From: Flavobacteriaceae bacterium
GTDB lineage: Bacteria > Bacteroidota > Bacteroidia > Flavobacteriales > Flavobacteriaceae
Reading direction: 5' to 3'
Length of the DNA: 55,871 nucleotides
Assembly: GCA_024638225.1 (NCBI GenBank)
Contig: JAHEKR010000007.1
Location: 17,815-73,685, forward strand
The position numbers and the translations under genes are program-made. Numbering within the stretch: position 1 is the first letter of the stretch; every line of letters begins with the position of its first letter. Shown here in pieces: positions 28,131-55,871 of the stretch. The notes beneath the pieces were generated by a model that saw only the letters and a list, made by a program, of their open reading frames with translations, was not told the DNA's origin and searched no databases.

Positions 28131-28508
28131 CTATCGCTGCATTTTTTTGGCCTCAATGCTTAAGGTTGCGTGCGGAACAAGTTTCAGTCGCTCTGCGCTT
28201 ATGAGTTTCCCCGTTACCCGACAAACACCATAGGTTTTATTTTCAATACGAATAAGGGCATTTTTTAGGTCCCGAATAAATTTTTCTTGACGTAACGCTA
28301 GTTGCGTATTTGCCTCTTTTGACATGGTTGCTGAACCCTCTTCAAATGCTTTAAAAGTAGGGGCTGTGTCGTCTGTGCCATTATTCCCGTCGTTCATATA
28401 CGCGCTTCGTATGAGTTCGAGATCGTTTTGGGCTTTAGCTATTTTCTCTTCAATAAGTGCCTTAAACTCTTGTAAGGCTTCATCTGGATAACGGTTTTTT
28501 AGTTCCAT
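28131..28508 (-). CDS. DksA/TraR-like protein with degenerate zinc finger
   Basis: 125-residue protein of the DksA/TraR family: an N-terminal coiled-coil region (about 10-45 and 60-95) and the C-terminal finger core YGVCRVTGKLISAERL. Of the four cysteines of the classic finger only C95 or so remains, the others being replaced (TG, HAT), so zinc binding in the usual way is doubtful. Such variants are frequent in this phylum. By family it would enter the secondary channel of RNA polymerase, but the acidic tip residues cannot be confirmed by eye. It sits between ileS (9-base gap) and lspA (3-base gap). Confidence 0.9.
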   Translation of the reverse strand: MELKNRYPDEALQEFKALIEEKIAKAQNDLELIRSAYMNDGNNGTDDTAPTFKAFEEGSATMSKEANTQLALRQEKFIRDLKNALIRIENKTYGVCRVTGKLISAERLKLVPHATLSIEAKKMQR

Positions 28509-28517
28509 AATTTCACT

Positions 28518-31500
28518 TTATTTCGATTTAACCATCTGTACATTCACTTCTAATGAATCAAACGAGAGTTCGATTGCATTATTTGGAAGCTTTTTGGCTG
28601 TATTGATATTGGTTGCCAAAATTTCATGTTGAATATACGATTTGTTTTCTTTTAATATTGCGTCAAGTTCTTTACTTGTGGTTAACAAGACATCAACTTT
28701 GTCGGTTACTTCAAAACCTAACTCTTTACGTGTGTTTTGAAGTCGGTTTATCAATTCTCGAGCCATTCCCTCCAATCGAAGCGACTCGCTCATCTGTACG
28801 TCCAAGGCTACGGTTACCCCTTGCTCAGAGGCAACAAGCCATCCCGCCACATCTTTAGAGCTGACGACAACATCCTCTGCTTGTAAAATACACTTTTTAT
28901 TGTCAAGCTCTAACTCTACCGACCCAATTTGCTCTAGTGTAGCAATGTCTTCCTCGCTTAATGCTTGAATTGCTTTGACTACCTCGCCCATGTCTTTTCC
29001 AAATCGAGGGCCTAGGGTTTTAAAATTAGGCTTTATTTCTTTTACCAAAATAGAAGAGCTGTCATCTAATAGCACTACCTCTTTTACATTTACCTCTGCA
29101 GCAATTAGAGTAGATACTGCCTCAATCTGTTCGCGAGCAAGGTTGTCCAATACGGGTATCATTATCCGCTGTAGCGGTTGGCGTACCTTGATTTTTTCTC
29201 GTTTGCGCAGGGACAAAACCAAGGAGGTGATTTTTTGCGCACGTTGCATTTTTTGTTCCAAGTCTGGATTAATCCACTCAGGCTTATGCTTGGGATAATA
29301 CGACACGTGTACAGAGCTTGCGGGTTCCCGTTGAGTACTGCCGTTTAAATCCTGAAACAAGCGATCGGCATAAAACGGTGCTACGGGAGCCATCATTTTA
29401 GAAACGCTTATGAGGCATTCATAAAGCGTTTGATAGGCCGAAATTTTATCTCTTTCGTAGTCCCCTTTCCAAAAACGTCTTCGACACAAACGAACATACC
29501 AATTGCTCAAATCTTCCGTCACAAAGTGATTAATCGCACGACACGCTCGCGTAGGTTCGTAAGCATCGTATAGCGCTGTGGTGTTTTTGATTAAGCTGTG
29601 AAGCTCTGACAATATCCACTGATCAATTTCTGGACGGTCTGCGAGCTCTATTTCATCTTCTGAAAAGACAAAACCATCAATATTGGCATATAAACTAAAA
29701 AAAGAATAGCTGTTGTAAAGCGTGCCGAAAAACTTCCTGCGAACCTCCTCAATTCCCTCCAAATCAAATTTGAGATTATCCCAAGGGTTGGCGTTGCTTA
29801 TCATATACCAGCGGGTAGCATCTGGGCCATAACGCGCTATGGTTTCAAATGGATCTGCAGCATTTCCCAAACGCTTAGACATTTTCTGTCCATTTTTATC
29901 AAGAACCAAGCCGTTGGAAACTACATTCTTATAGGCAACTGAGTCAAAAACCAGAGTAGCAATAGCGTGAAGGGTGTAGAACCATCCCCGAGTTTGGTCA
30001 ACTCCTTCCGCAATATAATCGGCGGGGAAGCTAATGCCCTGGTCTATTTTTTCTTTGTTTTCAAACGGATAATGCCATTGGGCATAAGGCATAGAACCCG
30101 AATCAAACCAAACGTCTATAAGGTCTGCCTCTCGAAACATCGGCTTCCCTGACTCGCTTAGTAGCACCAGTTCGTCGACTGTATCTTTGTGCAAGTCTAC
30201 CTGATTGTAATTTTTCTCCGAAAAATCCCCTGGGGTGAATGCAGAAAATGGATTGTTTACCATCAACCCGGCAGCAACAGATTCTTCTACAGCTAATTTT
30301 AGTTCTTCGATAGAGCCTATAATACGCGTTTCATTTCCGTCTGACGTGCGCCAAATGGGCAGCGGAATGCCCCAAAATCTTGACCGGGATAAATTCCAGT
30401 CGTTGGCACTTGCAAGCCAATTTCCGAAGCGGCCCTCGCCAGTTTTGGCAGGCTTCCATTGAATCGTCTTATTCAACTCAACCATTCGGTCTTTGTGCCC
30501 TTGAACATGGATAAACCACGAGTCTAAAGGATAGTACAATACAGGTGCGTCTGTGCGCCAGCAATGGGGATAGCTGTGTACATATTTTTCAACTTTAAAC
30601 GCTTTATTCTCTTCTTTTAATCGAATAGCGATTTCTACATCAACTGATTTTTCAGGGGCTTCCCCTTTTGGGTAAAACTCATTTTTTATCCATTTCCCGC
30701 CTACCAAACCTACTTCTGGTCGGAATTTTCCTTGCAAATCTACCAAGGGTACCGCATGGTTGTTTTCGTCAAGCACAAGGAGTGGAGGTATAGGTGGACT
30801 AGCCTCTTTAGCAACCATAGCGTCGTCTGCGCCAAAAGTGGGGGCCGTATGCACTATTCCTGTACCATCTTCTGTTGTGACAAAGTTGCCCGAAATGACC
30901 CGAAAGGCATCAGCAGCATTTTGATAGGGTAGCGGAGATTCGGTCCATAGTTGTTCGTATTGGATACCTACTAACTCAGCGCCCAAAACCTGTTGTTCTA
31001 TCCAGTAAGGTATTACTTTATCTCCTTCTGAATACTGAACCACTTCATCGCGGGTATTTACCGCTTTATATTTTTTGCCAAACTGTTTGGTAATAAGTTT
31101 TTGCGCAAGCAATACCCGCACTGGTGAATAGGTGTATTGATTTACTGTATGTACAACAGCGTACTCAATTTTTGGGCCTACAGTAAGGGCTGTATTAGAA
31201 GGTAATGTCCAAGGGGTGGTTGTCCATGCTAGAATATACAACGGAAGGTCGTGCTTTAACGCTGCTGGAAGAGAGTCCTCAATGGTTTTGAATTGGGCGG
31301 TAACGGAGGTATCCGTAACATCGCGATAGCAACCCGGTTGATTCAGCTCATGTGAAGAAAGTCCTGTTCCAGCCATTGGAGAATAAGGCTGAATGGTATA
31401 GCCTTTGTAAATAAGCCCTTTTTTGTACATGGTTGCCAATAGCCACCAAACTGACTCCATATACTTAGGTGTATAGGTAACATAAGGGTCTTGCATGTCC

Positions 31501-31922
31501 ACCCAATACCCCATTTTCTTGGTTAGGTCGTTCCAAACGTCCGTGTAGCGCATAACTGCTTCGCGACATGCCTTGTTGTATTGAGCAACACTAATGGTTT
31601 TCCCAATATCTTCTTTGGTAATGCCTAATTCTTTTTCAACGCCGAGTTCTACTGGTAAGCCATGGGTATCCCAGCCTGCCTTGCGCTTTACCTGATACCC
31701 TTGTTGGGTTTTGTACCGACAAAAAATATCTTTTAATGCCCTAGCCAAAACGTGATGAATTCCTGGAAGCCCATTTGCAGAGGGTGGACCCTCAAAAAAA
31801 ACAAAAGGAGGTCTTCCTTCACGGGTATCCACACTTGCTTCAAAGACAAGATGCTCGTCCCAGAAAGAAGATATTTCTGCTGCTACGTGAGGCAGGTCAA
31901 GTTGTTTGTATGAAGGAAACAA
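28518..31922 (-). CDS. ileS: Isoleucyl-tRNA synthetase, type 2
   Basis: Charges tRNA-Ile. 1134 residues, the long eukaryote-like (type 2) form with an extended C-terminal region instead of the zinc finger of type 1. The class I HIGH signature is rearranged: the segment NGLPGIHHVLA reads GIHH at 54-57. The second signature is KMSKR in NGQKMSKRLGN. The CP1 editing domain is present (HTAPTFGADDAM). There is no ATG; TTG at 31922 is the only usable start, since a stop lies four codons upstream in frame, and the sequence from there (FPSYKQLDLP) matches the family N-terminus. First gene of the ileS-dksA-like-lspA group. Confidence 0.96.
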   Translation of the reverse strand: MFPSYKQLDLPHVAAEISSFWDEHLVFEASVDTREGRPPFVFFEGPPSANGLPGIHHVLARALKDIFCRYKTQQGYQVKRKAGWDTHGLPVELGVEKELGITKEDIGKTISVAQYNKACREAVMRYTDVWNDLTKKMGYWVDMQDPYVTYTPKYMESVWWLLATMYKKGLIYKGYTIQPYSPMAGTGLSSHELNQPGCYRDVTDTSVTAQFKTIEDSLPAALKHDLPLYILAWTTTPWTLPSNTALTVGPKIEYAVVHTVNQYTYSPVRVLLAQKLITKQFGKKYKAVNTRDEVVQYSEGDKVIPYWIEQQVLGAELVGIQYEQLWTESPLPYQNAADAFRVISGNFVTTEDGTGIVHTAPTFGADDAMVAKEASPPIPPLLVLDENNHAVPLVDLQGKFRPEVGLVGGKWIKNEFYPKGEAPEKSVDVEIAIRLKEENKAFKVEKYVHSYPHCWRTDAPVLYYPLDSWFIHVQGHKDRMVELNKTIQWKPAKTGEGRFGNWLASANDWNLSRSRFWGIPLPIWRTSDGNETRIIGSIEELKLAVEESVAAGLMVNNPFSAFTPGDFSEKNYNQVDLHKDTVDELVLLSESGKPMFREADLIDVWFDSGSMPYAQWHYPFENKEKIDQGISFPADYIAEGVDQTRGWFYTLHAIATLVFDSVAYKNVVSNGLVLDKNGQKMSKRLGNAADPFETIARYGPDATRWYMISNANPWDNLKFDLEGIEEVRRKFFGTLYNSYSFFSLYANIDGFVFSEDEIELADRPEIDQWILSELHSLIKNTTALYDAYEPTRACRAINHFVTEDLSNWYVRLCRRRFWKGDYERDKISAYQTLYECLISVSKMMAPVAPFYADRLFQDLNGSTQREPASSVHVSYYPKHKPEWINPDLEQKMQRAQKITSLVLSLRKREKIKVRQPLQRIMIPVLDNLAREQIEAVSTLIAAEVNVKEVVLLDDSSSILVKEIKPNFKTLGPRFGKDMGEVVKAIQALSEEDIATLEQIGSVELELDNKKCILQAEDVVVSSKDVAGWLVASEQGVTVALDVQMSESLRLEGMARELINRLQNTRKELGFEVTDKVDVLLTTSKELDAILKENKSYIQHEILATNINTAKKLPNNAIELSFDSLEVNVQMVKSK

Positions 31923-34461: not shown

Positions 34462-35167
34462 ACAAAACCGCTAATGATTTAGGCGCTTTAAAGCCCTGAA
34501 CGTGAATTTGATAATAGCGCATAAGTAGTAATAACAATTCTCTGCGCTGTTGGGCGTTAACCGAAATCTCTTGCACTTCATCAAATTTCATACCTAAATA
34601 GCTTTTCAACAAAGAAATTGCTTCGCCTCCCACGCAATCCGTGCTGTCAGCACTAACACAAAAGTGACCGTTTTGTAGGTCAAAAAATTGTAGCTTTCGG
34701 TTCGTTGTGTCGGGATAGAATCCCAAATACTTCGTTAGTCGTATAAGAACAAAGAGGTGAAAGTTGGCTGTTTTTTGATGCGTATCTAACCAAATAAAAG
34801 CGTGTTCCAAAAATGCATACAGAACTTCGTTTTTTTCTTCTTCCTTAAGAACAGACCTAAGAATTTCTGCCAAAAACATGCAAATACTAGATTTAATCAT
34901 GTTGGTTGGAATACTCGTATATGGGTGGATAATTTTAGCCGATTTTAAGGTCGCAAGCCCCGAGCGCTTTGGTGTGCTTGCTAGCAATTCCAGCTGGGTC
35001 AAGGGCTGAAACATAGCCATCGAAAGGCTTTTGTTTTTCTTAGCTGTCCGCACACCTTTAGCGATAAATGATCGCAACCCATAATCCAAGGTATACACAT
35101 GTACAATAACACTTGTTTCGCTATAGTTGATCGCGTTCAAGACAATCCCCTTCGTTGACAATTCCAT
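34442..35167 (-). CDS. recO: DNA repair protein RecO
   Basis: Works with RecF/RecR to load RecA on SSB-coated DNA and to anneal single strands. 241 residues; N-terminal OB-fold beginning MELSTKGIVLNAINYSETS and GLRSFIAKGVR, followed by a helical domain. Only one of the zinc-ribbon cysteines expected in many RecO proteins is evident (CVGGEA), so the zinc site may be lost. ATG 35167 shares its first base with the TGA stop of porZ (TGATG arrangement), a sign of translational coupling. The 3' end overlaps the TonB receptor start by 20 bases. Confidence 0.93.
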   Translation of the reverse strand: MELSTKGIVLNAINYSETSVIVHVYTLDYGLRSFIAKGVRTAKKNKSLSMAMFQPLTQLELLASTPKRSGLATLKSAKIIHPYTSIPTNMIKSSICMFLAEILRSVLKEEEKNEVLYAFLEHAFIWLDTHQKTANFHLFVLIRLTKYLGFYPDTTNRKLQFFDLQNGHFCVSADSTDCVGGEAISLLKSYLGMKFDEVQEISVNAQQRRELLLLLMRYYQIHVQGFKAPKSLAVLYEVFKQ

Positions 35168-37449
35168 CAATTTATAATCATCACTTTTTTGACATTACTG
35201 TCTGTTCCGTCCTTTGAGCTAATAAATAACAAATATACCCCAGAACGGACGCGGCTCCCTGAAAAAGACCTCAGATCCCAACTAACACTTCCTCCTTTGC
35301 TGGTCATGTCATAAACCAAGTTCCCGGCTATATCCGTAATCTTAATTCGTGCATCCTGCTGAAGCCCTCGAACAATCAGGTTTCCTGTATACTCAGGGCG
35401 TACAGGGTTTGGAAATAATGAAACTGAAGATAAGTCTTGTTCTGGCTGGTAGGCGTCCCCTTGATAAGAAATCATGCCCAATAGCGTCCCAAAATACACT
35501 TTCCCAGTGCTCGCATCAATTCCAATTGTTTTAACAGAAGAAGAAGGAAGCGGGCTGTTTTCTTTAGTAAAGTGGTGCAGGATTTCTGTGCCATTTGCGC
35601 TAATCAAAAAAACGCCAGAGCTTGCTGTGCTAATCCATTTTTGGTTGTTCCCATCTACTTCAATATCCGTTATAAACTGTCCGCTTAATAGTTCCCTAAG
35701 GTTGCCGTCATCATTTACAACAACAGCATTAAGCTTGGTGTCTTCTTCAAAAAATATATTTGGCGTGTAAAGAACGGCTATTCCCTCTCGTGTACCAACC
35801 CATAACCGGTTGTCTTTGTCCAAGCGTATTGAGCGGACGTCGTCTGAAGGAAGTCCAAAGTCTTGTCCTGTGATTCGCTTCATAACAGGTGGTGATTGCG
35901 ATGTGTCAACTGCCATAATTCCGCTGTTAATTCCACCAAAAAACATAAGCTTATTGTTGTAAAATTCTAAATTTGAGTAGCCTGATTCTTTGGTGTAATC
36001 AAGGATCGCTCCCGTGATATCAAATGATGTCCATTCGCCAGAAGGAGTGCGCTTTTTAAGCCCTCTTTCGATAAACGCAGTAATCGACCATAAGTTCCCT
36101 TGATCGTCTACAACTGCATCGCGGACGCGGATACTGACATAATTAGCTCCATCAAATATCAAGCTTTCCAAGCCGCTGTTGCTAAGATTCCACAATTCGA
36201 CAGCTTCATTTTCTTTTAAATGTACGATGCCCCCATGATAAGAGCATGCGTATAGCGTTCCCAACTCTGATGGATGTGCCACCACACGAACAATGCTATC
36301 AACGTTAAAAAGAGCGTCATTGCTTATGTTTTTCCATTGACTATCTACAAAATGACTCATGCCATACTTTTCTAATGGGTATGGGTTGTAAAATGTAGAA
36401 TAATCTCCGTGGGAAATCCACAGTTCATTTTCTAGCGTTTCGATGTCAAAAATGTTGTTGAGCAAGGGTCCGTCTGGGCTGAGAAATTGAGGCTCTTCTG
36501 TTGCTTCGTAGCGAACAAGGCCATTGCTTGATGTGCCTATCAAAAAATAATTACTCCGCCTATGCGCAAACATAAATGTATGCGCTTTAACACCTGGAAT
36601 AGATCCGTATTCACTAGCTGTAAACTGCTCAGGATCCAACAAGATAATTTTACTTCTTAAGGTTAATACAACCCCTTCTTCGCTTATGAAAACATCTCTG
36701 AAGGTGCCCGAGTAATGTGCTTTTTGTTCTATGGTTACGCCAATTCTGTTTAAGCTAGTCGCGCTCCCTTCATTAATTGCTCCAAATAGATCCGTTCCGT
36801 GGTGCCACAAAGACACCCATTTCCCAATGGAATGCATATCCCATGAAGAAAACTCCAATATCTGGGGGTTGCTTACTGAAGAGCTGTAAAGCCCCTGAAC
36901 AGTTGCTGCGTATAATTTATTTTGAAAAACATATGCTTGAATAACTTCAATTCGATTGCCTAGTGGGCCAAAGTAATAGGTATCGCCAAACTCTAGTGTA
37001 GAAGGGTTAAGCTCAACTATGCCGAAACCTGTAGCCAAAAAAGCCGTGTCTCCATTTAAATGAATATGATTTATCTGCTTTTGTGTCGCGATAAGGTTTG
37101 GATTTCGCTCAATTGAATTGTCGTATGTTATTTTTTTGGTTGTTGTATCATATTGCGCTACCAAGCCATTTGTATGCCCAATAAGCACCATGCTTTGGTA
37201 AACTGATATTGCAGAAATAATGTCTCCGGAAAGGCCATCTACCGTAGTTATTTTCTGTGAGGTTGCAGAGCTTGTGTCGTAAATTAAGAGCGCGTTCTCT
37301 GCAGCAACGACTAGCTTTTGTCCAAAAGGTACTGCTTTGGAGGTGCTGTTGTACGAATAAAATGATTCCCACTGGTTCGTTTGTGCGTAGTTCGTCTGCT
37401 GGCACAAAGCAACGCAGCACAAAAACATCCAATAGTTTAGTTGTTTCAT
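35167..37449 (-). CDS. porZ: Type IX secretion system component PorZ
   Basis: 760-residue secreted propeller protein. Signal peptide MKQLNYWMFLCCVALC to about residue 22. The N-terminal PorZ-type beta-propeller (about 28-330) and a second set of blades with WVGTREGIAVLY and WISTASSGVFLI follow. A type A C-terminal sorting domain occupies about 675-760: LFPNPVRPEYTGNL, KITDIAGNLVYD, and the final GVYLLFISS ... KKVMIIN. In Porphyromonas, PorZ is part of the cell-surface attachment complex with PorU, PorV and PorQ, and carries a sorting signal itself. Start: TACGTTTG promoter at 37457-37464 lies 8 bases before ATG 37449; a TTG one codon up is ignored. Coupled to recO by a TGATG overlap. Confidence 0.88.
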   Translation of the reverse strand: MKQLNYWMFLCCVALCQQTNYAQTNQWESFYSYNSTSKAVPFGQKLVVAAENALLIYDTSSATSQKITTVDGLSGDIISAISVYQSMVLIGHTNGLVAQYDTTTKKITYDNSIERNPNLIATQKQINHIHLNGDTAFLATGFGIVELNPSTLEFGDTYYFGPLGNRIEVIQAYVFQNKLYAATVQGLYSSSVSNPQILEFSSWDMHSIGKWVSLWHHGTDLFGAINEGSATSLNRIGVTIEQKAHYSGTFRDVFISEEGVVLTLRSKIILLDPEQFTASEYGSIPGVKAHTFMFAHRRSNYFLIGTSSNGLVRYEATEEPQFLSPDGPLLNNIFDIETLENELWISHGDYSTFYNPYPLEKYGMSHFVDSQWKNISNDALFNVDSIVRVVAHPSELGTLYACSYHGGIVHLKENEAVELWNLSNSGLESLIFDGANYVSIRVRDAVVDDQGNLWSITAFIERGLKKRTPSGEWTSFDITGAILDYTKESGYSNLEFYNNKLMFFGGINSGIMAVDTSQSPPVMKRITGQDFGLPSDDVRSIRLDKDNRLWVGTREGIAVLYTPNIFFEEDTKLNAVVVNDDGNLRELLSGQFITDIEVDGNNQKWISTASSGVFLISANGTEILHHFTKENSPLPSSSVKTIGIDASTGKVYFGTLLGMISYQGDAYQPEQDLSSVSLFPNPVRPEYTGNLIVRGLQQDARIKITDIAGNLVYDMTSKGGSVSWDLRSFSGSRVRSGVYLLFISSKDGTDSNVKKVMIIN

Positions 37450-37456
37450 CAAATAA

Positions 37457-50736: not shown

Positions 50737-50744
50737 TATCTTTG
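50737..50744 (+). promoter_or_regulatory. -7 element TATCTTTG for gltX
   Basis: Exact TAnnTTTG on the plus strand, 12 bases before ATG 50757. It overlaps the in-frame TTG at 50742, which is therefore not the start. Confidence 0.7.
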
Positions 50745-50756
50745 CAAAAAATTTTT

Positions 50757-52265
50757 ATGCCCGTTCGAGTTCGTTTTGCGCCTAGCCCAACAGGACCCCT
50801 GCATATCGGTGGGGTGCGTACTGCGCTTTATAATTTCCTGTTTGCCAAGAAGCACGGGGGAACATTTATCTTGCGGATTGAAGATACAGATAGGCAACGA
50901 TACGTCGGTGGGGCAGAGGCATACATCCTTCAGGCCTTAGCGTGGATGGGCATATCGCCTGCTGAGGGGCCTGAACATGGAGGCGACTACGGACCATATC
51001 GACAGAGTGAGCGTAAAAAGCTGTATATCAAAAACATAGAGCGGCTTGTGGCGCAAGGAAATGTTTATTTGGCCTTTGATACTGCTGCAGAATTGAGCGC
51101 ATTGAGAAAGGCGGCCGATTCAAATGGCGAAACCTTCATTTATAATTGGAAGAACAGAAGTGGGCTTAAAAACAGCCTCTCCATGACGCACGAAGAGGTC
51201 CAAAGCGCACTGGAGAACGACACCCCTTTTGTGTATCGTTTTATTGCGCATCGAGATGGCGAAAATAAGGACCTGTTTTTAGAAGACATCGTTAGAGGAC
51301 GGATGCGCGTTGATAAGTCATTGTTAGACGACAAGGTTCTGGTAAAACAAGACGGCATGCCAACTTATCACTTGGCAAACGTAGTGGATGATCATCTAAT
51401 GGAAATATCCCATGTTATTCGGGGTGAAGAATGGCTTCCCTCTTTAGCCATGCACCTATTGCTTTACCAGGCTTTTGGTTGGCAAGCGCCAGAGTTTGCG
51501 CATGTGCCCTTGATTTTAAAGCCAAAAGGGAAGGGAAAGTTATCGAAACGAGATGGCGCTACTTTTGGGTTTCCTGTTTTTCCTCTGGAATGGAAAGGCG
51601 AAAACGCTGGTTTTCGAGAAAGCGGATACTTACCCGAAGCGCTTCTTAATTATTTGGCGCTCTTGGGGTGGAATGATGGAAGTGACCGTGAACTGTTTTC
51701 GCTAGACGAATTAACAAGTGCCTTTTCGCTCACAAGCATAACAAAATCTGGAGGGCGATTTGATCCAGATCGATGTAAATGGTTTAACCAACAATATCTT
51801 GCACAGCTATCCGTAGATGAATTAATTCCTGTGCTGCAAAAGGAGCTCGCTGTACACGGAGTTGAACAGACGTCAATGGAACTAGGAAAAGTAGTTTCCC
51901 TTATACAAGACCGTTTGGTTTTGTTAAGCGATCTGTGGAAAGAGGCCGCTGTGTTTTTTGTCCGCCCCAGTGATTTTGACGAAAAGGCCGTACAAAAACA
52001 ATGGAAGGCAGAAACCCCTAAAATATTGCTTGCTCTTGAAGGGCTCATTACTTCACTAGACGATAAGTCCGCTGAGGGAATTCGTACGGCTGTGAAAAAA
52101 TGGGCAGACGCCAATGAAATACGCTTGGGTGCTGTAATGGCGCCGTTGAGATTAGCTCTAGTAGGCGAAATGAAAGGCCCTGACGTCTTTATGCTTTGTC
52201 AGCTTATTGGTGGAGATGAGACGAGCGTTCGTATTCTCTTTGCCGTTGAAACTATATCTGCATAA
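50757..52265 (+). CDS. gltX: Glutamyl-tRNA synthetase
   Basis: Class I synthetase, 502 residues. HIGH-type motif LHIGG at 15-19 in FAPSPTGPLHIGG and KLSKR at 261-265. The C-terminal anticodon-binding domain is of the bacterial helical type. Both GluRS and a separate GlnRS (53872-55871) are encoded in this window, so this enzyme is expected to be discriminating and not to need the Gln amidotransferase route. The SPFH gene follows after 36 bases. Confidence 0.97.
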   Translation: MPVRVRFAPSPTGPLHIGGVRTALYNFLFAKKHGGTFILRIEDTDRQRYVGGAEAYILQALAWMGISPAEGPEHGGDYGPYRQSERKKLYIKNIERLVAQGNVYLAFDTAAELSALRKAADSNGETFIYNWKNRSGLKNSLSMTHEEVQSALENDTPFVYRFIAHRDGENKDLFLEDIVRGRMRVDKSLLDDKVLVKQDGMPTYHLANVVDDHLMEISHVIRGEEWLPSLAMHLLLYQAFGWQAPEFAHVPLILKPKGKGKLSKRDGATFGFPVFPLEWKGENAGFRESGYLPEALLNYLALLGWNDGSDRELFSLDELTSAFSLTSITKSGGRFDPDRCKWFNQQYLAQLSVDELIPVLQKELAVHGVEQTSMELGKVVSLIQDRLVLLSDLWKEAAVFFVRPSDFDEKAVQKQWKAETPKILLALEGLITSLDDKSAEGIRTAVKKWADANEIRLGAVMAPLRLALVGEMKGPDVFMLCQLIGGDETSVRILFAVETISA

Positions 52266-53267: not shown

Positions 53268-53894
53268 TTATAGCGATAAAGCTTGTGTGAGTGTGCACAA
53301 AAACACCCAGCGTTTTAGCTTGCTAAACTGCCAATGCATCATACCCGCATTTAGGCGTAAGTACGGCGAAAGTTTGTGCGCAGCTTGGGCAATAAAACGG
53401 TTTTGATTAAAGCTGCCCGCTGTATTTGTTAGAAACGCCTCGTTGCTTATGGATACTGCCGTTTTTTCGTTTAATTGACGGCTTAATGTAATTCCTATTC
53501 TGTAGCGCAATTGAAAATGATCGTCTGTCCACCGCTCTTCCAACATAAAACTATTGGTTAGCTTGAGTTGGCCTAGGCTGCTTACCAAGGCCGCCTTTTG
53601 ATACATTCCGTTTTCTAAAAACGTATTTGTGTTTAGGTGTCGATATCCGGCACCAACAGTAAATGCGGGTGTGATTTTTCTGGTTAGACCTGCGGTAATG
53701 AGGTTTTGATCTTGTGCAAGGTTGAGCGTAAAGCTCCTGTGCTGATATTGGGTGTCAACTTGATATTTTTCAGATATTTTAAGTTGGTTTTTGTAAACAA
53801 ACCAAGAACCTACGTCTGTTTGAGCCAGAGCTGGGCTAGCCAACAGAAATAAAAACAGAGGGGTAATTTTTTTAAAGAATAAATGTTTGTGCAT
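53268..53894 (-). CDS. DUF2490 family outer-membrane-like protein
   Basis: 208-residue protein with a signal peptide ending SPALAQ. The mature part is a series of amphipathic beta-strands with alternating aromatic residues (GSWFVYKNQLKI, YQHRSFTLNLAQDQNL, FTVGAGYRHL, FQLRYRIGITLSRQL), ending in hydrophobic residues, as in small outer-membrane barrels. Function unknown. Its 5' end overlaps the 3' end of glnS by 23 bases, so it is probably translated from the glnS transcript. Confidence 0.82.
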   Translation of the reverse strand: MHKHLFFKKITPLFLFLLASPALAQTDVGSWFVYKNQLKISEKYQVDTQYQHRSFTLNLAQDQNLITAGLTRKITPAFTVGAGYRHLNTNTFLENGMYQKAALVSSLGQLKLTNSFMLEERWTDDHFQLRYRIGITLSRQLNEKTAVSISNEAFLTNTAGSFNQNRFIAQAAHKLSPYLRLNAGMMHWQFSKLKRWVFLCTLTQALSL

Positions 53895-55871
53895 AAGTTG
53901 CTAGTTTTTCGTTTTTGTCTTCTTGTGCTGTTTTAATGAATTCATCCGCTGATGTTGATCGGCTTAGTCCATTTGCCTCTTGAGCTTCCAGAACAATAAG
54001 TACCGCCATGCGTGTGCCTGTTTTTTTTACTGCTGTAGCGAAAAGTGGTTTTAAATCGTCTGGTGATATATCTACTGCTAATTCGATTAGCTTGGCTTTG
54101 GCCTCCTGCTGTTTTTCTTTTGGAAGGTTCATATACTTTTTACCAAGTTTACGAAGGGCATCTACTGGCTTTTGGGTGGGCGTTTGCTGCGCTTGTGGGC
54201 GGGTTTTTGGTTGTTGTTTACTCCACGTGTCTCTAATGCCAACGGTTTTGTTAAAAACCTTTTTTTTGTTGTTGCTGTCGCTGTCACAAACAAAATATCC
54301 CAAGCGTTGAAATTGAAACTTTTGATTCGGTTGAGCATCGCCTAGCATGGGTTCGGCTAGTGCGGCGCTTGTTACAAAGGAGTTGGGGTTAAGGCGATCC
54401 ATAAAATCTACTTCTTTGTCAGCGTCTGGGCTTTCTGTTCGAAACAAGCGATCGTATTGACGCACTTCAATTTCTGTTGCTTCGGCTGCTGAGACCCAAT
54501 GCAGGGTGCCCTTCACCTTGCGTTGGCTTTCTTCGGTTCCGCTACCGCTCAGGCTTTTTGGATCATATGTGCAGTACACCGCAGTTATGGTGCCGTCTTT
54601 TTCTTTTTCTACAGAAGTTGCCTTAATAATATATGCGCTTTTGAGGCGCACCTCACCTCCCAGCTTAAGTCGAAAAAATGTATCGTTTGCCTCCTCCATA
54701 AAATCTTCGTGTTCTATAAAAAGAGTGTTGCTAAATGGGATAAAACGCGTGCCGGAGTTTGGATCCTCAGGGTTGTTTTCTGTTTCTACTTGCTCTGATT
54801 TGTTCTGTGGGTAGTTGGTAATAATGACTTTTAGTGGATTTAGCACCGCCATTGCACGAGTAGCTGTTTTGTTTAAGTCTTCTCTTATACAGAACTCCAA
54901 AAGAGATGCGTCAATAACGTTTTCTCTTTTAGCGACACCAACCGCTTCTGCGAATTTACGAAGAGACGTAGGTGTATACCCTCGCCTGCGCAAGCCACTA
55001 ATTGTGGGCATGCGTGGATCATCCCAACCTGTTACTTTACCTTCATGTACAAGGCGCTGTAGTTTTCTCTTGCTGGTAATGGTGTAATTTAGATTCAGTC
55101 GAGCGAATTCGCGCTGCTTCGGTCGAAGACCGTCTGTGACAAGTTGATCTAGAAAGGCGTCATAAAGATCTCGGTGAGGTTTGAACTCAAGCGTACAAAG
55201 GGAATGTGATATTTGCTCTAAATAATCCGATTGACCGTGTGCCCAATCATACATCGGGTAAATACACCAACTTCCTTTTGTTCTGTGGTGGTCTTTGTGT
55301 AAAATTCTATACATGATGGGGTCGCGGAGTAGCATATTGGGGGATGTCATGTCGCCTTTATAGCGAAGGGTAAGCGATCCTTCGGGGTGTTGGCCTTCTT
55401 TCATTTCGAAAAAAAGACGAAGCGCTTCTGCCGGCTCTTGATTTCTATATGGACTATCCAGACCTGGGGTTGTTGGCGTTCCTTTCTGTTGTGCCATTTG
55501 CTCAGGAGATTGTGGATCAACGTAGGCCTTACCTTGCTTGATAAGTGACACTGACCAATCGAATAATTGATCAAAATAATCCGAGGCAAAACACTCCTTG
55601 TCCCATTTATATCCTAGCCAAGAAACGTCTTTTTTGATTGCATCAACATAATGCTGTTCTTCTTTTGCGGGGTTGGTGTCATCAAAACGCAAGTTAACTG
55701 GTGCACTGTATTTTTGTCCTAGCTCAAAATTTAAACATATTGCTTTGACGTGCCCGATGTGTAAATAACCGTTCGGTTCAGGAGGAAAACGAAAGCGAAG
55801 TAAGGATGGATCAAGTCCGGTTTCAAGGTCTTGATCTATAATGTGTTCAATAAAGTGTTTGGACGGCTTAT
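53872..55871 (-). CDS. glnS: Glutaminyl-tRNA synthetase with C-terminal extension (5' end outside window)
   Basis: Charges tRNA-Gln directly. 665 residues are visible and only the first few residues are missing at the right edge. HIGH motif in YLHIGHVKA (visible residues 35-43), the LRFDDTNP block, YDWAHGQSDYLEQI, and the second signature as TSKRKL. Canonical GlnRS proteins end shortly after the TVGIRDTW segment; here another 116 residues follow (53872-54222). They consist of a Gln/Pro/Thr-rich linker (PQTR... region, about 20 residues) and a helical domain of about 95 residues (LRKLGKKYMNLPKEKQQEA ...). The extension is not recognisable to me and does not resemble the YqeY domain fused to the deinococcal enzyme. 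DUF2490 gene overlaps the end. Confidence 0.93.
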   Translation of the reverse strand, partial: KPSKHFIEHIIDQDLETGLDPSLLRFRFPPEPNGYLHIGHVKAICLNFELGQKYSAPVNLRFDDTNPAKEEQHYVDAIKKDVSWLGYKWDKECFASDYFDQLFDWSVSLIKQGKAYVDPQSPEQMAQQKGTPTTPGLDSPYRNQEPAEALRLFFEMKEGQHPEGSLTLRYKGDMTSPNMLLRDPIMYRILHKDHHRTKGSWCIYPMYDWAHGQSDYLEQISHSLCTLEFKPHRDLYDAFLDQLVTDGLRPKQREFARLNLNYTITSKRKLQRLVHEGKVTGWDDPRMPTISGLRRRGYTPTSLRKFAEAVGVAKRENVIDASLLEFCIREDLNKTATRAMAVLNPLKVIITNYPQNKSEQVETENNPEDPNSGTRFIPFSNTLFIEHEDFMEEANDTFFRLKLGGEVRLKSAYIIKATSVEKEKDGTITAVYCTYDPKSLSGSGTEESQRKVKGTLHWVSAAEATEIEVRQYDRLFRTESPDADKEVDFMDRLNPNSFVTSAALAEPMLGDAQPNQKFQFQRLGYFVCDSDSNNKKKVFNKTVGIRDTWSKQQPKTRPQAQQTPTQKPVDALRKLGKKYMNLPKEKQQEAKAKLIELAVDISPDDLKPLFATAVKKTGTRMAVLIVLEAQEANGLSRSTSADEFIKTAQEDKNEKLATYAQTFIL

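What the first reader, a model, noticed from the sequence alone, without database searches (positions are those of the whole stretch)
31743..31775. IleRS with GIHH in place of HIGH
The type 2 IleRS has NGLPGIHHVLA where class I synthetases have the HIGH motif: the first and third positions are exchanged (GxHH). This rearrangement has been described in natural type 2 IleRS enzymes and associated with very high resistance to mupirocin. Its presence here predicts intrinsic resistance without any acquired gene.
Basis: partly seen in the sequence, partly recalled or inferred. Interest (0 to 1): 0.62.

Follow-up and report, generated by a model that had tools for sequence, protein, structure and literature searches.

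The report
Ordinary isoleucyl-tRNA synthetase with swapped motif
This is the normal housekeeping enzyme that loads isoleucine onto its tRNA in a flavobacterium; its swapped active-site motif is real, is shared by every relative of its phylum that was examined, and belongs to a kind already linked to very high resistance to the antibiotic mupirocin.

Summary
The 1134-residue IleRS on the minus strand (28518-31922) reads NGLPGIHHVLA at 31743-31775, GIHH at residues 54-57, where class I synthetases have HIGH. It is not an error: relatives encode the motif with other codons, and five other class I synthetases of the genome keep their usual motifs. The protein falls in the type 2 IleRS clade, has the type 2 C-terminus, sits in the gene order ileS-dksA/traR-lspA and is the only ileS found in its genome, 80.5% complete. 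The G/AXHH motif and its millimolar mupirocin Ki were published in 2023 (PMC10485003). New here is a survey: the motif was GXHH in 123 of 123 unnamed phylum genomes read (of 395 drawn, all 55 families) and 80 of 80 named close relatives. So this is an ordinary inherited trait of the phylum, not a peculiarity of this organism. Enzyme-level mupirocin insensitivity is very likely; whole-cell resistance is plausible but untested. Fixation in all families read suggests that something other than mupirocin maintains the motif; that is inference. A strict coupling of GXHH with Leu672, which I proposed, failed.

The parts
28518..31922 (-). ileS, type 2 isoleucyl-tRNA synthetase, 1134 aa, TTG start
   Evidence: ORF; TIGR00392 959.1 bits; PF00133, Anticodon_1 and C-terminal DUF5915; inside the IleRS2 clade of the tree. 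A TTG at the same place begins the open frame of the nearest relative L009.
31743..31775 (-). NGLPGIHHVLA, swapped HIGH motif (GIHH = residues 54-57, 31752-31763)
29871..29885 (-). KMSKR, the KMSKS loop (residues 680-684)
   Evidence: the fifth position varies across the phylum
29907..29909 (-). Leu672, at the place of the stacking Phe586 of PmIleRS1 / His582 of PmIleRS2
   Evidence: place counted by hand on the alignment to 8c8u/8c8w and; coordinate; Leu in 80 of 80 named loci and 53 of 60 family representatives
31206..31226 (-). WTTTPWT (residues 233-239), threonine-rich peptide of the post-transfer editing domain, intact
   Evidence: invariant in the 8 rows of alignment A1; role of the peptide is recalled
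28131..28508 (-). TraR/DksA-type zinc-finger protein, next gene after ileS
   Evidence: Family matches only under their cut-offs (best 54 bits, cut-off 134.4); identity rests also on the same gene order, annotated TraR/DksA, in L179, L180, L191
27498..28127 (-). lspA, lipoprotein signal peptidase
   Evidence: NF011369, 241 bits, cut-off 200

Best explanation
This is the housekeeping isoleucyl-tRNA synthetase of a Flavobacteriaceae-related bacterium (placed by its nearest named relative), a type 2 IleRS inherited vertically in Bacteroidota together with the G-X-H-H form of the HIGH motif. By analogy with the Priestia enzyme, the third-position His (H56) does the transition-state job of the usual first His, and Gly54 takes the swapped place; a shifted helix tip in type 2 enzymes lets the adenine still fit. 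The same His would clash with mupirocin, so a Ki from tens of micromolar to millimolar is expected. Shown here: motif, type, gene order, single copy found, fixation in all relatives read. Inferred: catalytic role of H56, Ki and cell-level resistance.
For: ORF and motif. Match to the ileS equivalog. Type 2 clade of 51 rows apart from 7 IleRS1 rows, SH-aLRT 99; window inside a 38-row Bacteroidota clade, SH-aLRT 97, all GXHH. C-terminal DUF5915 and no IleRS zinc finger, as in two type 2 controls and opposite to E. coli IleRS1. Best PDB match by sequence is 8c8w, the GVHH mutant of Priestia IleRS2. Gene order ileS-dksA/traR-lspA as in three other Bacteroidota records. One ileS over the cut-off in the genome. 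GXHH in 123 of 123 unnamed phylum genomes read and 80 of 80 named loci. Kinetics of natural and engineered GXHH enzymes in print.
Against: No kinetics or MIC for this protein or a near relative. The genome is 80.5% complete, so a second ileS could be missing. Engineered GVHH in Thermus IleRS2 reached only Ki 35 uM, so the motif alone does not guarantee millimolar Ki (table). The AlphaFold model was too poor (mean pLDDT 55.9) to look at the active site. The tree is a quick one with long-branch and composition warnings.
Confidence: 0.92

Rival explanations
1. The motif is an assembly or sequencing error, or the gene is decaying.
For: The source is a fragmented genome of 65 contigs and the gene has a TTG start.
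Against: Open frame of 1134 aa; relatives encode the motif with different codons; GXHH in all 203 relatives read; the TTG is shared with L009.
Confidence: 0.01
2. It is an acquired or second resistance copy of ileS rather than the housekeeping gene.
For: Mobile type 2 ileS genes exist: 142 of 181 plasmid records with a match are Staphylococcus, and the Staphylococcus rows among the 60 listed are annotated mupA or resistance ileS.
Against: Same gene order as three other Bacteroidota records; no other ileS over the cut-off in the genome; the protein lies within the Bacteroidota clade. The one mupA read has HAGH, not GXHH.
Confidence: 0.03
3. Mupirocin selection keeps GXHH in this organism, i.e. 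the motif is an active resistance adaptation.
For: The published authors presume selection by environmental antibiotic for the origin of the motif.
Against: No exception in 123 genomes read, all 55 families drawn; a trait kept only by one antibiotic would be expected to revert sometimes, as published for the Deinococcus-Thermus clade. This is an argument, not a test.
Confidence: 0.3
4. GXHH is an ancestral lock-in of the Bacteroidota active site and the mupirocin effect is a by-product.
For: Fixation in all relatives read; the published inactivity of GXHH in IleRS1 and its kinetic cost in canonical IleRS2 show that the motif depends on the rest of the active site.
Against: A natural reversion is reported in Deinococcus-Thermus, and the natural Deinococcus enzyme stayed active when its motif was made canonical (table). 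The coupled site I proposed, Leu672, is not strict: 4 of 60 family representatives with GXHH have His and 3 have Met.
Confidence: 0.45

Closest known systems
G/AXHH type 2 IleRS (DrIleRS2 ALHH, SgIleRS2; PMC10485003)
   Same: Type 2 IleRS with first and third HIGH positions swapped; natural; enzyme-level hyper-resistance expected.
   Different: From Bacteroidota; the main text of that paper has no hit for 'bacteroid' or 'flavobacteri', though its tree, which I could not see, may include them. KMSKR instead of KMSKS.
Priestia megaterium IleRS2 and its GVHH mutant (PDB 8c8u, 8c8w)
   Same: Matched over 17-258 and 306-1114, E 2.9e-222 and 9.9e-224; the GVHH mutant has the same motif pattern.
   Different: The natural Priestia enzyme is HVGH and has His582 where the window has Leu672.
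MupA / MupB mobile mupirocin-resistance IleRS
   Same: Type 2 IleRS; 733.8 and 727.6 bits, far under the 1900-bit cut-offs.
   Different: Acquired; the MupA read (L186) is plasmid-borne and has the canonical HAGH motif.
Type 1 IleRS (E. coli)
   Same: Same reaction, class I core.
   Different: HIGH motif and Phe at the position of Leu672, 26% identity, separate clade, zinc finger in place of DUF5915.

Membership tests
Isoleucyl-tRNA synthetase | Match to the ileS equivalog over its cut-off | tested here: met
   959.1 bits, cut-off 621.4
Type 2 IleRS | Clusters with IleRS2, not IleRS1 | tested here: met
   51-row clade, SH-aLRT 99, quick tree, motif columns left out
Type 2 IleRS | C-terminal region without the IleRS1 zinc-binding motif | tested here: met
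   Window: DUF5915 at 939-1130 and no zinc finger. Controls: MupA and Acetoanaerobium the same; E. coli IleRS1 has zf-FPG_IleRS and no DUF5915; the Listeria piece scanned ends before that region
G/AXHH non-canonical IleRS2 | Gly or Ala first, His third and fourth in the motif | tested here: met
   GIHH, residues 54-57
G/AXHH non-canonical IleRS2 | Raised mupirocin Ki | not testable with these tools
   Needs a purified enzyme
Intrinsic mupirocin resistance of the organism | No sensitive type 1 ileS in the genome | tested here: inconclusive
   None found, but the genome is 80.5% complete
MupA/MupB acquired resistance gene | Passes the family cut-off and lies on a mobile element | tested here: not met
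   733.8/727.6 bits against cut-offs of 1900; usual Bacteroidota gene order

The most novel reading that the evidence does not exclude
Across Bacteroidota the swapped signature motif is a fixed ancestral state locked in by the rest of the active site, so that a whole phylum is insensitive to mupirocin at the target as a by-product; such enzymes may also share the loss of tRNA-dependent pre-transfer editing reported for the Streptomyces griseus enzyme (GXHH), relying on post-transfer editing alone.
Probability: 0.3. Interest if true: 0.45.

Novelty: already known. Interest (0 to 1): 0.17.

Why it matters
The motif was described as a hyper-resistance device in 2023. Finding it without exception in the 123 phylum genomes read says that target-level mupirocin insensitivity should be expected of Bacteroidota generally, and that their ileS should not be called an acquired resistance gene; one paper on a flavobacterium lists it in its table of resistance genes (PMC10835994). 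It also makes the question of why the motif is kept testable in a well-defined phylum.

Tried and rejected
Coupled-site idea: GXHH with Leu at residue 672, HXGH type 2 with His, type 1 with Phe. It held in the rows first seen but failed as a rule. Among 60 family representatives with GXHH, 53 have Leu, 4 His, 3 Met; the viral-collection GXHH rows L198 and L199 have Met and His; the HXGH row L197 has Leu, as does the Thermus enzyme with HVGH (alignment). Phe was not seen with GXHH in these sets.

Mobile GXHH ileS: Bacteroidota records labelled plasmid (Riemerella L179, Parabacteroides L180, Bacteroides L191) have the ileS-traR/dksA-lspA order of the window, so they are probably chromosome pieces. 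Prevotella (1.8 Mb), Acetoanaerobium (2.6 Mb) and Nonomuraea (11.9 Mb) are very large records labelled plasmid. Of 181 plasmid records with a match I read the motif in 12, so a mobile GXHH gene among the rest is not excluded.

Structure: an AlphaFold model from 16 closely related sequences had mean pLDDT 55.9, with residues 24-93 under 50. No fold search was run on it.

Literature for mupirocin MIC in Bacteroidota: four searches, of which I saw the listings (15 of 18, 10 of 10, 12 of 77 and 12 of 344 papers), and passages of PMC7564983, PMC13085705 and PMC10835994, gave no MIC. PMC13085705 says that mupirocin was predicted to increase Bacteroidaceae diversity in culture, which is weakly consistent. 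That Bacteroides is mupirocin-resistant is recalled and comes from no call.

Motif in print: a search for GIHH, GXHH or GVHH found 17 papers, 15 listed; by the listing only PMC10485003 concerns a synthetase.

Full report
What is there. The minus-strand ORF 28518-31922 encodes 1134 residues. It matches ileS (TIGR00392, 959.1 bits, cut-off 621.4) and carries PF00133, the anticodon-binding domain and DUF5915. At 31743-31775 it reads NGLPGIHHVLA, so GIHH occupies residues 54-57 where HIGH is expected; the KMSKS loop is KMSKR at 680-684. The coordinates of the finding are exact. The start is TTG; an in-frame TAG lies four codons upstream (read by hand). The nearest named relative, L009 (Flavobacteriaceae NAT231, 77% identity), also has TTG there.

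It is not an error. The seven relatives whose codons I printed (L009, L010, L133, L138, L119, L182, L184) encode the motif pattern with various codons. Other class I enzymes have their usual motifs: ValRS HMGH, and HVGH and HIGH in the frames that I take, by size and motif context, for LeuRS and MetRS; GlnRS HIGH and GluRS HIGG in this window. A further class I frame of 499 aa on contig C10 was not read.

Type and ancestry. In a tree of 59 rows over 820 columns, with the motif and KMSKS columns left out, 51 type 2 rows separate from 7 type 1 rows with SH-aLRT 99, and the window lies in a 38-row Bacteroidota clade (SH-aLRT 97) in which every row is GXHH. It is a quick tree. The tool warned of long branches (the ValRS outgroup, L197, L198, L199, L209 and others), of joins between them that may be false, and of odd letter make-up in 13 rows; the smallest starred sets that hold the window (2, 5 and 9 rows) are all GXHH. 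GXHH needs at least three changes on this tree, but starred branches force only one, so I cannot count origins; the published analysis infers at least two. As a second test of type, the window protein, MupA and the Acetoanaerobium enzyme have C-terminal DUF5915 and no IleRS zinc finger, whereas E. coli IleRS1 has the zinc finger and no DUF5915.

Copy number. In the window's own genome (1,484,756 bases, 65 contigs, 80.51% complete) 11 stretches match ileS, and one exceeds the cut-off. PF00133 gives 7 stretches in 5 open frames, with no second ileS. Of 395 phylum genomes drawn, 390 have a match at 1e-100 or better. Four of these have two matches: in G190 and G255 they lie in one open frame, and in G280 and G315 they are pieces on different contigs; the two pieces of G280 overlap in the model, so a second copy there is not excluded. 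The matches near 1e-80 look like ValRS by length and coverage; I did not read them. Five of 395 had no match at 1e-100; G176, listed as 100% complete, had none at 1e-75 either and is unexplained.

Survey of the motif. Named loci: 80 of 80 GXHH (66 GIHH, 14 GVHH); these are the best 80 of 593 candidates in a capped search, so close relatives by construction. One or more genomes per family: 60 of 60 (50 GIHH, 8 GVHH, 1 GLHH, 1 GMHH). Best-scoring 30 of the phylum search: 30 of 30 GIHH (all, recounted). A further 40, mostly from other genera in the listed part: 34 GIHH, 4 GVHH, 2 GLHH. By eye they cover all 55 family codes of the draw. The choice was not random: the best 30 and most of the 40 come from the higher-scoring rows. 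None of those read has HXGH. Named and unnamed sets may overlap.

Known mechanism. Of PMC10485003 I saw the abstract, sections 7, 8, 9, 11, 18 and 31, and passages. It reports that natural G/AXHH type 2 enzymes have mupirocin Ki in the millimolar range (Deinococcus 6.6 mM), that making the Deinococcus motif canonical drops Ki 823-fold, and that GVHH raised Ki about 200-fold in the Thermus and Priestia enzymes (about 430-fold in its discussion of Priestia). In the Priestia structures the third His takes the place of the first His, and by modelling it would clash with mupirocin. Of PMC4861432 I saw section 34 and passages: the Streptomyces griseus enzyme has Ki 10 mM and no tRNA-dependent pre-transfer editing. 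By sequence the best PDB match to the window protein is 8c8w, which that paper deposited as the GVHH mutant of Priestia IleRS2.

Interpretation. The enzyme is the housekeeping IleRS, and the motif is inherited. Enzyme-level insensitivity follows with good probability from the published work; cell-level resistance also depends on uptake and was not tested. Fixation of the motif in all families read suggests that something other than one antibiotic maintains it, such as lock-in by the rest of the active site; this is inference.

A failed idea. I first thought that Leu at residue 672 (Priestia His582, type 1 Phe586) goes with GXHH. It is Leu in 80 of 80 named loci and 30 of 30, but in the 60 family representatives it is Leu 53, His 4, Met 3. 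In the tree alignment the positions that separate 43 GXHH from 8 HXGH type 2 rows at over 80% in each were 54, 56, 116, 120, 652 and 672; with 38 of the 43 from one phylum this reflects kinship as much as coupling.

Mobility. Plasmid records: 181 with a match at 1e-50, 142 of them Staphylococcus. Three Bacteroidota 'plasmid' ileS genes lie in the window's gene order. The MupA read is HAGH. Among the 12 records read I found no convincing plasmid-borne GXHH ileS. Contigs of the viral collection carry three GXHH enzymes, L192 (the same contig as L195), L198 and L199 (see noticed in passing).

Noticed in passing
L199:2971-5808 (IMG/VR contig of 430,229 bases): A GIHH IleRS of 945 aa beside an RtcB-type ligase (phrog_1075) on a very large contig classed as viral; it may be a huge-phage IleRS with the swapped motif. 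Long branch near the base of the type 2 clade, place unsure.
   Followed up: partly
L198:2953-6105 (IMG/VR contig of 31,678 bases): A very divergent IleRS-like protein with NPMGVHH and GKFSKT in place of KMSKS, near a tyrosine integrase (phrog_1). Possibly a mobile-element paralogue.
   Followed up: partly
L192:5324-8464 (IMG/VR contig of 15,846 bases; also L195): A GIHH type 2 IleRS about 4 kb from an integrase-like ORF; in the tree it pairs with the Clostridia enzyme of Acetoanaerobium, so the contig may be bacterial.
   Followed up: partly
L203-L209, L211-L217, L219: Most other viral-collection contigs found carry IleRS with canonical HXGH in a type 1-like context (YAN...), several on contigs over 100 kb; only L203, L206 and L209 were placed in a tree.
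   Followed up: no
L179, L180, L191 (PLSDB records): Bacteroidota records labelled plasmid carry ileS in the order ileS-traR/dksA-lspA, with lepA also in L179; probably chromosome fragments mislabelled as plasmids.
   Followed up: partly
genome G176 (phylum search): Listed as 100% complete but without any ileS match at 1e-75. Cause not looked into.
   Followed up: no
window 29871-29885: The last residue of the KMSKS loop is Arg; across 60 family representatives it is S 39 (one as KMAKS), R 15, T 3, and H, K, N once each.
   Followed up: partly
window 50742-52265 and 53872-55871: GluRS and GlnRS genes lie in the same window; GlnRS runs off the window's end.
   Followed up: no
window 35167-37452: PorZ of the type IX secretion system (NF052228, 632.5 bits) next to recO, upstream of ileS.
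   Followed up: no
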